A stretch of 37,716 bases of DNA from Exiguobacterium sp. (lineage in GTDB: Bacteria; Bacillota; Bacilli; Exiguobacteriales; Exiguobacteriaceae): NCBI RefSeq assembly GCF_020832205.1, contig NZ_JAFIFD010000045.1, positions 1 through 37,716 of the forward strand, read 5' to 3'. The notes under the pieces were generated by a model. That model was not told where the DNA came from, did not search any database, and saw only the letters and a program-made list of their open reading frames with translations. Both the position numbers and the translations under genes were made by a program. This document shows positions 23,107 through 25,961 of the stretch, one piece after another. The first letter of the stretch is position 1. Every line of letters begins with the position of its first letter.

Positions 23107-24975
23107 TTATTCTGCCATCAATGCGCACACTGCATTCGAATAGGCGACCGGGTCTTCAATCGGTAACCCTTCGATGAGGAGTGCTTGCTGATAGAGCAAG
23201 TCGGTATACTGCTTCGCTTTCGCCTCGTCTTCTGTATAAACGCGCTGTAACGTCTGGAAGATGGCATGGTCGGCGTTCACTTCGAGCACTTTTTCGGCTT
23301 TCATGCCGCCGCCGTTTGGCATTGCGTTCAAAATCTTCTCCATTTCAATCGAGACGTCACCCGCGACCGTCAAGCAGACCGGGTGCGACTTGAGGCGTGT
23401 CGACGCGCGCACTTCTTTGACGCGGTCGCCGAGCTCGGCCTTCATGAAGGCGAACAAGTCTTTGTTGTCCTCATTGAGCGAATTTGCCGCCTCATCGTCG
23501 AGCCCAAGGTCACCGCTCGCAATTGACTTGAACTCTTTGTCGTCATACGACTGAAGCATCTTGATGGCGAACTCGTCGATCTCTTCTGTGAAGTAGAGGA
23601 TCTCGAACCCTTCCTCTTTCAAGCGTTCCGCTTGCGGCAATAGGTCGATGCGGTGAATCGATTCACCCGTCGCGTAGTAGATGTACTTCTGATCGTCTTT
23701 CATGCGCGCGACGTACTCTTTGAGCGTGACGAGCTTTTTCTCGTTCGACGAGTGGAACAAGAGCAAGTCTTTCAACTCGTCTTTCGCGGCCCCGAACTGG
23801 TCGTAGACACCGAACTTGATTTGACGGCCGAACGATTCGAAGAACTTCTCGTAGTCCTCACGCTCGTCACGGAGCATCTTCTCGAGCATGCCTTTGATTT
23901 TCGACTTCACGTTCTTGGCGATGACACGGAGTTGTCGGTCCTGCTGCAACATCTCCCGGGAAATGTTGAGGGAGAGGTCTTCTGAGTCGACCATTCCTTT
24001 GACGAAACCGAAGTAGTCCGGCAATAAGTCAGGTGACTTCTCCATGATCAAGACGCCGTTCGAATACAGTTCGAGTCCTTTCTCGAACTCTTTCGTATAA
24101 TAGTCGAACGGGACCGTCGATGGGATGTAGAGAATCGACTGGTAACGGATCGTGCCGTCGACGTTCAAGTGGATGTGTTTGAGCGGCTCGTCGAAGCCGT
24201 AGCGCTTCTCGTGATAGAACGCCTTGTAGTCCTCATCCGAGAGCTCGCTCTTCCGCTTGCGCCAAATCGGCACCATGCTGTTGATCGTCTCTTCTTCGAC
24301 ATAGTCCTCGTACTCTTCCGAGTCGTCTTTTTGGCGGTGTTTCGTCACGTCGAGCTTAATCGGGTAACGGATGAAGTCCGAATGTTTCTTGATAAGCGAA
24401 CGAATCTCATACTCTTCGAGAAACGTCGAGTACGTCTCGTCGTCCGAATCGGCTTTCACGTGTAACGTGATTTCCGTACCGACGTCCGCTTTGTCTGTCG
24501 GTTCGATCGTGTAACCGTCTGTGCCTTCTGATTCCCACAAGTAGCCTTGCTCGCTGTCGACCGAGCGGGTACGGACCGTTACACGGTCGGCGACCATGAA
24601 CGCCGAGTAGAAGCCGACGCCGAACTGACCGATGAGGCTGTGGTCTTCTTCCATCTTCGTCGCCTGCTTCATCGCGAGTGAGCCGCTCTTGGCGATGATC
24701 CCGAGGTTAGACTCGAGCTCGTCGGCCGTCATCCCGATTCCGGTGTCGCGGATGGTGATCGTGCGGGCATCTTTGTCGAGTTCGACTTTGACGAAGTAGT
24801 CGTCCTTGTTGAAGTCAATCGCCTCGTCCGAGAGGGCTCGGTAATACATCTTGTCGATGGCATCACTCGCGTTCGAGATGAGCTCACGGAGGAAGATGTC
24901 CTTATGCGTATAGATTGAGTGGACCATCAACTCTAAAATTCGTTTCGATTCGGCTTGAAACTGTTTCTTTGTCAT
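23107..24975 (-). CDS. htpG: Molecular chaperone HtpG (Hsp90)
   Basis: A 622-residue bacterial Hsp90, an ATP-dependent homodimeric cytoplasmic chaperone. The N-terminal GHKL ATPase domain has [14 protein letters not shown] and [11 protein letters not shown]. The middle domain (about 230-490) includes the family's [25 protein letters not shown] and [11 protein letters not shown] segments. The C-terminal dimerisation domain completes the normal length. ATG 24975 has AAAAGGAGA; an in-frame extension to 25032 would run through the CIRCE operator and is rejected. It is transcribed alone. Confidence 0.97.
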
Positions 24976-25002: not shown

Positions 25003-25029
25003 TTGGCACTCTTGTAACGAGAGTGCTAA
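25003..25029 (-). promoter_or_regulatory. CIRCE element (HrcA operator) of htpG
   Basis: TTGGCACTC, nine bases, GAGTGCTAA: the classic 9-N9-9 CIRCE repeat with a single substitution in one arm (TTAGCACTC is consensus). It lies between the htpG promoter and ribosome site, so HrcA should repress htpG until heat shock. Confidence 0.92.
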
Positions 25030-25037
25030 CACTATTG

Positions 25038-25065
25038 ATTATCCTAATTTTTAGAAAGATGTCAA
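25038..25065 (-). promoter_or_regulatory. Sigma-A promoter of htpG
   Basis: On the minus strand TTGACA (25060-25065), a 16-base spacer and GATAAT (25038-25043), directly upstream of CIRCE. Confidence 0.75.
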
Positions 25066-25083: not shown

Positions 25084-25112
25084 TTGACGGGGGAGGCAGA
25101 TTCGCATATAGT
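25084..25112 (+). promoter_or_regulatory. Sigma-A promoter of the structured RNA at 25119
   Basis: TTGACG (25084-25089), a 17-base spacer and TATAGT (25107-25112), divergent from the htpG promoter with 18 bases between the two -35 boxes. Confidence 0.75.
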
Positions 25113-25118
25113 TGAGTA

Positions 25119-25238
25119 CATGCGATGAGCTGGTCTATGTAAGACGGCGGACATTCCTTTTAGGAGCACGTTGTGGAGCGTGGTTCGACGCGGTAGACTT
25201 TTCGAGAGCACCTCTAGTGAGAGGTGCTCATTTTTTTT
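25119..25238 (+). ncRNA. Candidate small RNA or attenuator leader
   Basis: About 120 bases between a good promoter and an intrinsic terminator contain no credible open frame. Several short stems are visible: GTCT/AGAC (25133-25145), TCCT/AGGA near 25154-25165, GCGT/ACGC near 25178-25190 and a possible closing pair GTCTA (25133) with TAGAC (25194). The hexamer GAGCAC occurs both at 25164-25169 and in the terminator's 5' arm, so the 3' arm has two possible partners. I recognise no Rfam class. It could be an independent sRNA, or the leader of the now-deleted VOC gene that begins 17 bases after the terminator. Confidence 0.55.
25206..25238 (+). terminator. Intrinsic terminator of the structured RNA
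   Basis: GAGCACCTCT (25206-25215) and AGAGGTGCTC (25220-25229) pair perfectly around AGTG, followed by A then T8. Confidence 0.9.
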
Positions 25239-25254
25239 GCATATGGGGATTATC

Positions 25255-25308
25255 ATGAACCTACATACGATCCATCATGTGGCGATTATCGCCGAACTAC
25301 ACGAATAA
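25255..25308 (+). pseudogene. Deletion remnant of a YaeR-like glyoxalase (VOC) gene
   Basis: An 17-residue open frame, MNLHTIHHVAIIAELHE then stop. The first 13 residues match the start of YaeR/SMU.1112c-type VOC metalloenzymes (typically ...IHHVAII-S/A-D-Y), including the metal-binding His region. The last residues ELHE-stop match the usual C-terminus (DPDGLP-LELHE). Both gene ends appear joined in frame, with about 110 codons missing between. GGGG 7-9 bases upstream could be its ribosome site, and the intact gene-end terminator follows directly. A true short peptide gene or chance match is possible but less likely. Confidence 0.6.
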
Positions 25309-25332
25309 AGCCCCTTCATGCGAAGGGGCTTT
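25307..25332. terminator. Bidirectional terminator after the VOC remnant and tetR
   Basis: AAAGCCCCTTC (25307-25317) and GAAGGGGCTTT (25322-25332) are perfectly complementary around a four-base loop. Each strand has a short U-run. Confidence 0.85.
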
Positions 25333-25334
25333 CG

Positions 25335-25961
25335 TTATGGGCGCACATACGACAACAGCATCTCTTTTAACACCCGCTGCTGGATGAACGGCTCGATGTC
25401 CTCCTCTAAGTAGCTGATGTGCGACTTCAAGATGATATTGTTGCCGAACGTACCGAACGCGTTGATGATCGTGACGACTGTCGCCTTCACGTCCAGGTTA
25501 TCTCGAAGCGACCCGTCCGTTTTGCCGTCTTCAATGAGCGGTTCGAGCGTCTTCATGATCTCACATTGCAATTCGATGTAATCATCGATGTCAGGTAATG
25601 GGGTCGTGACGAAGGAAGCGTAACTTTCAAACGCCTCACGGAACCGCGAGTGGTTCGTCCGCTTCATTTGTTGGTCGAGCAAGTAATCAAGGATCGCCTC
25701 GAGTCGCGTATAGGCGTCGCCAGGCGTTGTCGTCAATTGTTTAAACGTTTCAAGTGTCGGGGCCAAGTTACGTACAGCCGCGGCAACGATCAGTTGGTCT
25801 TTCTTTGGGAAGTAACGGAACAGCGTCGCGACGCCAATTTCGGCCGCGTCGGCGATGTCCTGCATTTGCACACGCTCAAAGCCGTCTTTTAAAAATAGGA
25901 GTTCGGCTTGCTCGATGATGCGATTCAATCGTTCTTCTTTGTTTTGTTGTCGTTTGTTCAT
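25335..25961 (-). CDS. TetR-family transcriptional regulator
   Basis: A 208-residue TetR/AcrR regulator. The N-terminal helix-turn-helix (about 10-57) contains the standard FERVQMQDIADAAEIGVATLFRYF-like segment with GVATLFRYFPKKDQL. The C-terminal helical ligand and dimer domain resembles TetR_C members of Bacilli. It is divergent from an SDR gene with a 21-base palindrome between them, so it most likely represses that gene and itself. ATG 25961 has AGAGGTGA. The ligand is unknown. Confidence 0.9.
   Translation of the reverse strand: MNKRQQNKEERLNRIIEQAELLFLKDGFERVQMQDIADAAEIGVATLFRYFPKKDQLIVAAAVRNLAPTLETFKQLTTTPGDAYTRLEAILDYLLDQQMKRTNHSRFREAFESYASFVTTPLPDIDDYIELQCEIMKTLEPLIEDGKTDGSLRDNLDVKATVVTIINAFGTFGNNIILKSHISYLEEDIEPFIQQRVLKEMLLSYVRP

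What the first reader, a model, noticed from the sequence alone, without database searches (positions are those of the whole stretch)
25119..25308. Structured leader RNA with terminator placed right before a gutted gene
A sigma-A promoter, about 120 bases with several short stems, a perfect terminator with T8, and then 17 bases later a start codon: the order of a transcription-attenuating riboswitch. The ORF after it now has 17 residues. GAGCAC occurs both in the body and in the terminator's 5' arm, so alternative pairing is possible. I recognise no known class. If it was the VOC gene's switch, it may sense a dicarbonyl or related metabolite; if independent, it is an sRNA that outlived its neighbour.
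Basis: partly seen in the sequence, partly recalled or inferred. Interest (0 to 1): 0.62.

Follow-up and report, generated by a model that had tools for sequence, protein, structure and literature searches.

The report
A known small RNA, BsrF
The structured RNA in front of the broken gene is a copy of BsrF, a small RNA already known from Bacillus, and not a new metabolite switch for that gene; the gene beside it was lost and the RNA stayed.

Summary
The anatomy described is real: a promoter (25084-25112), about 110 nt of structured RNA, a 10-bp terminator with T8 (25206-25238), and 17 bases later a 17-codon ORF. But the RNA is a known class. Window 25122-25229 matches the whole model of Rfam RF01411 (BsrF) at 60.2 bits, cut-off 50.

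It is single-copy and present in 19 of 19 genomes held for the genus. The neighbouring VOC gene is intact in 12 of 19, just after the RNA, and absent as an intact gene in 7 of 19, which all keep the RNA. The window's RNA is identical over 108 nt to three relatives with an intact VOC gene. In 134 BsrF loci outside the genus the downstream ORF is opposite in 73, same-strand in 54, uncalled in 7. Three helices covary in 60 diverse sequences (0 of 500 shuffles as high).

So it is best read as a free-standing small RNA, not the VOC gene's riboswitch. The 17-residue ORF is an in-frame internal deletion of VOC. I found no conserved target and no clear CodY box. Ordinary: a new member of a known family.

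The parts
25084..25112 (+). sigma-A type promoter of the RNA: TTGACG, 17 bases, TATAGT
   Evidence: TTGACG at the matching place in 19 of 19 genus loci, read by eye
25122..25229 (+). BsrF small RNA gene (Rfam RF01411), whole model 1-113; transcript start inferred from the promoter at about 25118-25120
   Evidence: covariation
25122..25131 (+). 5' segment GCGATGAGCT, unpaired in the centroid fold (partly paired in the minimum-energy fold); proposed pairing or binding segment
   Evidence: identical in 23 of 24 fetched model-found loci outside the genus (the 24th, L035, has GCGATGAGCA); fold
25206..25238 (+). intrinsic terminator (10-bp stem, T8), end of the RNA
   Evidence: a hairpin followed by a T run found in 155 of 157 BsrF loci by a crude scan
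25256..25309 (+). remnant of a VOC/glyoxalase gene: first 13 and last 4 codons, in-frame internal deletion
   Evidence: the intact relative in L016 matches Pfam PF00903
25003..25029 (-). CIRCE-like inverted repeat in the upstream region of the divergent htpG gene (motif name recalled)
   Evidence: read
23107..24975 (-). htpG (Hsp90), divergent neighbour; an ORF with the same start lies beside the RNA in 19 of 19 genus loci
25335..25958 (-). TetR-family regulator, convergent neighbour

Best explanation
It is the Exiguobacterium copy of BsrF, a free-standing small RNA of about 110 nt, with its own promoter and its own intrinsic terminator. Shown here: family membership, conserved secondary structure, conservation independent of the neighbouring gene. 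Inferred: that it is transcribed as such and acts in trans, most likely by pairing its near-invariant 5' end (GCGAUGAGCU), and perhaps the UGUGG hairpin loop, with target mRNAs. I found no target. CodY activation is reported for BsrF in B. subtilis by citing papers and is not shown for this genome.
For: Full-length RF01411 match, 60.2 bits against a cut-off of 50, E 8.9e-9 over the window; one copy in the own genome; over the cut-off in 19 of 19 genus genomes and in 53 of 398 genomes sampled from the class, own genus included (54 at E <= 0.001; 17 of 145 genera). Of 14 named control genomes only B. subtilis matches. Of 19 loci drawn from the 119 found by DNA pattern, 18 pass the RF01411 cut-off; L158 does not. 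Covariation in 60 diverse sequences: 88.6% of cells paired, 15 of 19 pairs with double changes, score 0.488 against 0.205 in shuffles, 0 of 500 shuffles as high on any of five measures, 0.03-0.06 when slid by 1-3 columns. In the genus the RNA is 96.6% identical on average, the core promoter 84.5%, the stretch downstream 65.5%. VOC present or absent makes no visible difference to the RNA. Outside the genus the downstream ORF is opposite in 73, same strand in 54, uncalled in 7 of 134 loci; 150 downstream proteins fall in 77 clusters.
Against: No transcript was seen. No conserved target was found: the one convincing start-site match to the 5' segment in this genome (ackA) is kept in only 2 of 19 genus genomes. 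CodY-like boxes are not clearly enriched upstream of the family: 12 of 155 loci with at most 3 mismatches, 6.6 expected, and at least 6 of the 12 are Exiguobacterium rows. The other genus of the same family has no match in 19 of 19 genomes. The score in this genus (55.3-63.4 bits) is lower than in many other genera (up to 110.6 bits). The first codons of htpG are nearly as conserved within the genus (95.0%) as the RNA (96.6%), so identity in the genus alone proves little. 54 of 134 loci outside the genus do have a same-strand downstream ORF, and 12 of 19 genus genomes have VOC directly behind.
Confidence: 0.93

Rival explanations
1. A transcription-attenuating riboswitch or leader for the VOC gene, sensing a dicarbonyl or similar metabolite, now orphaned.
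For: Promoter, structured RNA, terminator and start codon in that order. In 12 of 19 genus genomes an intact VOC gene starts about 20 nt after the terminator stem. GAGCAC is in the body in 18 of 19 genus loci.
Against: 7 of 19 genus genomes lack an intact VOC gene and keep the RNA. Outside the genus the downstream ORF is on the other strand in 73 of 134 loci, and among the 25 largest flank clusters shown the only one that I recognise as VOC is the Exiguobacterium one. The alternative pairing has predicted probability 0.0. Not clean: a shared 6-mer between body and terminator 5' arm is seen in 20 of 121 distinct bodies outside the genus (9.7 expected from mononucleotide shuffles); 12 of the 20 are AAGACG, at the UAAGNCG segment, and none is GAGCAC.
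Confidence: 0.03
2. A double-purpose RNA: BsrF as a trans-acting sRNA which, in the species with VOC, also lets some transcription read through into VOC, so that VOC follows BsrF's promoter.
For: The VOC start codon lies about 20 nt after the terminator stem, and in the window scan no promoter-like site on that strand lies between the BsrF promoter and the ORF.
Against: No transcript data; the terminator looks strong (10 bp, T8). The promoter scan is a crude consensus scan, run on the window only, not on a genome with intact VOC.
Confidence: 0.2
3. Chance fold of a promoter plus a terminator left over from the lost gene.
For: The promoter pattern alone is at chance level (3 found, 2.4 expected) and the single-sequence fold is only moderately better than shuffles (z -2.11).
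Against: Family match, presence in 19 of 19 genomes, covariation.
Confidence: 0.005

Closest known systems
BsrF (SR2) small RNA of Bacillus subtilis, Rfam RF01411
   Same: Whole covariance model matched over the cut-off; same three helices, 5' GCGAUGAGCU, UAAGNCG, UGUGG, own terminator.
   Different: Lower score than many other copies; different neighbours (htpG and VOC or TetR here; a table in PMC3574147 puts the B. subtilis gene between yobO and csaA, passage seen); no extended -10, while 116 of 134 loci outside the genus have one; CodY control not shown here.
Terminator-type riboswitches and attenuators
   Same: Promoter, structured RNA and terminator ahead of a coding start.
   Different: No conserved downstream gene, no supported antiterminator, RNA kept without the gene.

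Membership tests
BsrF, RF01411 | Score above Rfam's gathering threshold over the whole model | tested here: met
   60.2 bits against 50, model positions 1-113 of 113
BsrF, RF01411 | Consensus helices P1, P2 and the inner hairpin, supported by compensatory change | tested here: met
   A2, 60 sequences including the window: 0 of 500 shuffles as high. The inner hairpin is in another register in the Exiguobacterium row of this alignment (my reading)
BsrF, RF01411 | Free-standing intergenic gene with own promoter and terminator | tested here: met
   by sequence only, no transcript
BsrF, RF01411 | Transcription activated by CodY (reported for B. subtilis; passage in PMC3574147) | tested here: inconclusive
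   A codY gene is in this genome. The best upstream box has 3 mismatches to the recalled consensus; 12 of 155 loci have 3 or fewer, 6.6 expected
BsrF, RF01411 | Discrete transcript (a peak of 93 nt is listed for SR2/BsrF in PMC3574147) | not testable with these tools
   needs RNA-seq or Northern
Terminator-type riboswitch | Conserved association with a downstream gene or pathway | tested here: not met
   No intact VOC in 7 of 19 genus genomes; 150 downstream proteins in 77 clusters, mixed strand. Pathways of the downstream genes were not assigned
Terminator-type riboswitch | Alternative antiterminator pairing | tested here: not met
Other antiterminators were tested only through shared 6-mers
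Terminator-type riboswitch | Ligand binding | not testable with these tools
   in-line probing needed

The most novel reading that the evidence does not exclude
In Exiguobacterium BsrF shares a regulatory interval of about 145 bp with the heat-shock gene htpG, including a palindrome that has no other exact copy in these genomes, and in most species also feeds read-through transcription into a VOC gene: a small RNA tied to heat shock and carbonyl stress rather than to CodY alone.
Probability: 0.08. Interest if true: 0.4.

Novelty: new member of a known kind. Interest (0 to 1): 0.15.

Why it matters
It settles the finding: no new riboswitch class is needed. What remains useful is the wide comparative set (131 distinct 92-nt cores among 157 loci), which marks the conserved segments (5' GCGAUGAGCU, UAAGNCG, UGUGG) of an sRNA for which I saw no target that I could confirm in the passages I read, and shows that the RNA is kept when its neighbours change.

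Tried and rejected
Riboswitch for VOC: rejected on context, conservation without the gene, and absent alternative pairing. The body/terminator repeat test was not clean: 20 of 121 distinct bodies outside the genus share a 6-mer with the terminator 5' arm, 9.7 expected from mononucleotide shuffles; 12 of the 20 are AAGACG from the UAAGNCG segment. I read this as incidental, but did not prove it.

Target search: the complement of the 5' segment, AGCTCATCGC, occurs 13 times in the own genome (own gene included; reversed control 7). The script printed 12 of the 13; the last, L165, was read and lies inside what looks like coding sequence. One lies just after a convincing start codon, in ackA (gene named by me from the NAGSSSLK motif, no family search run); some other places touch short ORFs that I took as spurious. 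The ackA match is present in 2 of 19 genus genomes and in 0 of the 11 sister-genus loci read, of 19, so I rejected it as a conserved target. Genus-wide matches (list cut) were not followed gene by gene, and pairings with mismatches or G-U were not searched.

CodY box: consensus recalled; 12 of 155 loci at 3 or fewer mismatches, 6.6 expected from Markov-sampled shuffles (part of the row listing was cut from view, the totals were shown).

RNAalifold on the first MAFFT alignment of 18 gave only 8 pairs. The structure was laid by hand, after the Rfam consensus and by looking at the new alignment, so its advantage over slid versions is partly built in. I built no covariance model of my own.

Downstream strand: a first count gave opposite 85, same 65, none 7 of 157, but it missed VOC where an ORF ran through the RNA; one search recounts with starts allowed only after the RNA (ORFs of 70 codons or more, crude calls): outside the genus opposite 73, same 54, none 7 of 134; inside it (23 rows, 4 of them duplicates) opposite 6, same 17. 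The 77 clusters of downstream proteins still rest on the ORF choice.

Literature: searches. One search lists 5 papers holding BsrF, subtilis and sRNA; I saw passages of four and not of the fifth. The primary paper (Preis et al. 2009, PMC2725614) is not held, so CodY activation is taken from citing passages. No held paper holds both Exiguobacterium and BsrF, and none holds RF01411. One passage (PMC4634765) equates BsrF with SR1, which it says represses AhrC translation; another (PMC2784878) lists bsrF and SR1 as different RNAs, and PMC3574147 calls it SR2/BsrF and lists SR1 apart.

Rows dropped: of 162 loci, 157 passed my motif filter; L035 is a true model hit with a changed motif; L084, L126, L136 and L138 carry the motif without the rest. 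Of the 35 model hits outside the genus, 24 were fetched. The 119 pattern loci were checked with the Rfam model in a sample of 19 only: 18 pass, L158 does not.

Full report
The observation. The promoter, the structured stretch, the terminator with T8 and the 17-codon ORF are present at the given coordinates. The promoter pattern alone is at chance level (3 found, 2.4 expected); the fold is moderately better than shuffles (z -2.11, 4 of 200). Taken alone these would be weak.

What it is. cmscan of the whole window at Rfam's gathering thresholds gives one match: window 25122-25229, plus strand, RF01411 BsrF, 60.2 bits (cut-off 50), E 8.9e-9, model 1-113 of 113 (alignment). It is single-copy in the own genome. 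All 19 genomes held for the genus, the own one included, have one copy over the cut-off, 55.3-63.4 bits. Of 398 genomes sampled from the class, 54 match at E <= 0.001 and 53 pass the cut-off, in 17 of 145 genera. The other genus of the same family has none in 19 of 19; a looser motif scan with 2 mismatches finds only two scattered hits there, both in one genome. Of 19 of these 119 tested with Rfam, 18 pass the BsrF cut-off.

Structure. On 60 diverse BsrF cores, the window's included, three helices (19 pairs) laid after the Rfam consensus are paired in 88.6% of cells; 15 of 19 pairs show double changes; covariation score 0.488 against 0.205 in shuffles, 0 of 500 as high on all five measures; sliding the partners by 1-3 columns drops the score to 0.03-0.06. 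The structure was placed by hand on this alignment, which favours it over slid versions. RNAalifold on an earlier alignment of 18 found only 8 pairs. The 5' GCGATGAGCT is identical in 23 of the 24 model-found loci fetched outside the genus; the other, L035, has GCGATGAGCA.

Context. In 19 of 19 genus loci an htpG-type ORF lies divergent to the RNA (Pfam HSP90 for the window's copy). An intact VOC-type protein (Pfam PF00903 in L016) is encoded about 20 nt after the terminator stem in 12 of 19. The other 7 (G000, G003, G006, G010, G013, G014, G017) have only distant relatives elsewhere (at best 38% identity), and all keep the RNA. The window's ORF reads MNLHTIHHVAIIAELHE, the start and the end of the VOC protein with the middle gone in frame. 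The window's RNA is identical over 108 nt to L010, L011 and L012, which have an intact VOC gene. Within the genus the RNA is 96.6% identical on average (lowest 91.7%); for comparison the first htpG codons are 95.0%, the next htpG stretch 87.0%, the core promoter 84.5%, the stretch downstream 65.5%. Outside the genus, 134 loci: downstream ORF opposite in 73, same strand in 54, uncalled in 7 (crude ORF calls). The 150 downstream proteins picked fall into 77 clusters, the largest of 10. Some loci are the same contig found twice; 157 loci hold 131 distinct cores.

Mechanism. I take it as a free-standing small RNA acting in trans, most likely through its conserved 5' end; this step is inference. 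A search for perfect complements of that segment gave 13 places in the genome, one just after a convincing start codon (ackA), not conserved (2 of 19 in the genus). Papers that cite the primary work say BsrF is activated by CodY in B. subtilis (passages in PMC3574147 and PMC4634765). This genome has codY, but CodY-like boxes are not clearly enriched upstream of BsrF genes (12 of 155 with 3 or fewer mismatches, 6.6 expected; at least 6 of those 12 are Exiguobacterium rows, two of them duplicates). So CodY control here is open.

Alternatives. The attenuator reading fails on context, on conservation without the gene and on the pairing test. A weaker version, read-through from BsrF into VOC in the 12 genomes that keep it, is not excluded. 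The shared 6-mer test between body and terminator gave a twofold excess outside the genus (20 of 121 against 9.7), mostly AAGACG (12 of 20); none of it is GAGCAC.

Verdict. A new member of a known sRNA family beside a deleted gene.

Noticed in passing
window 25042-25056 and the matching place in L001-L019: A 15-bp palindrome TCCTAAWWWTTAGGA lies in the spacer of the htpG promoter, between BsrF and htpG. It is exact in 14 of 19 genus genomes, where it has no other exact copy; in the window and four others it is imperfect. None in the 19 sister-genus genomes. It may be the site of an unknown regulator.
   Followed up: partly
window 25003-25029: A CIRCE-like repeat stands before htpG, which suggests HrcA control of htpG here (motif recalled, read).
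   Followed up: no
genomes G019-G037: The other genus of the same family lacks a BsrF match in 19 of 19 genomes although the own genus has it in 19 of 19: a loss or gain at genus level, or divergence past the model.
   Followed up: partly
L063: A record titled Chryseobacterium sp. ISL-80 holds BsrF (97.7 bits) with flanking proteins that cluster with those of a Mesobacillus record, L045, and of L023; it looks mislabelled.
   Followed up: partly
window 25256-25309: Clean in-frame deletion of the VOC gene leaving 13 + 4 residues.
   Followed up: yes
L118 positions 123-752: Two T-box leaders in tandem in a Virgibacillus halodenitrificans record.
   Followed up: no
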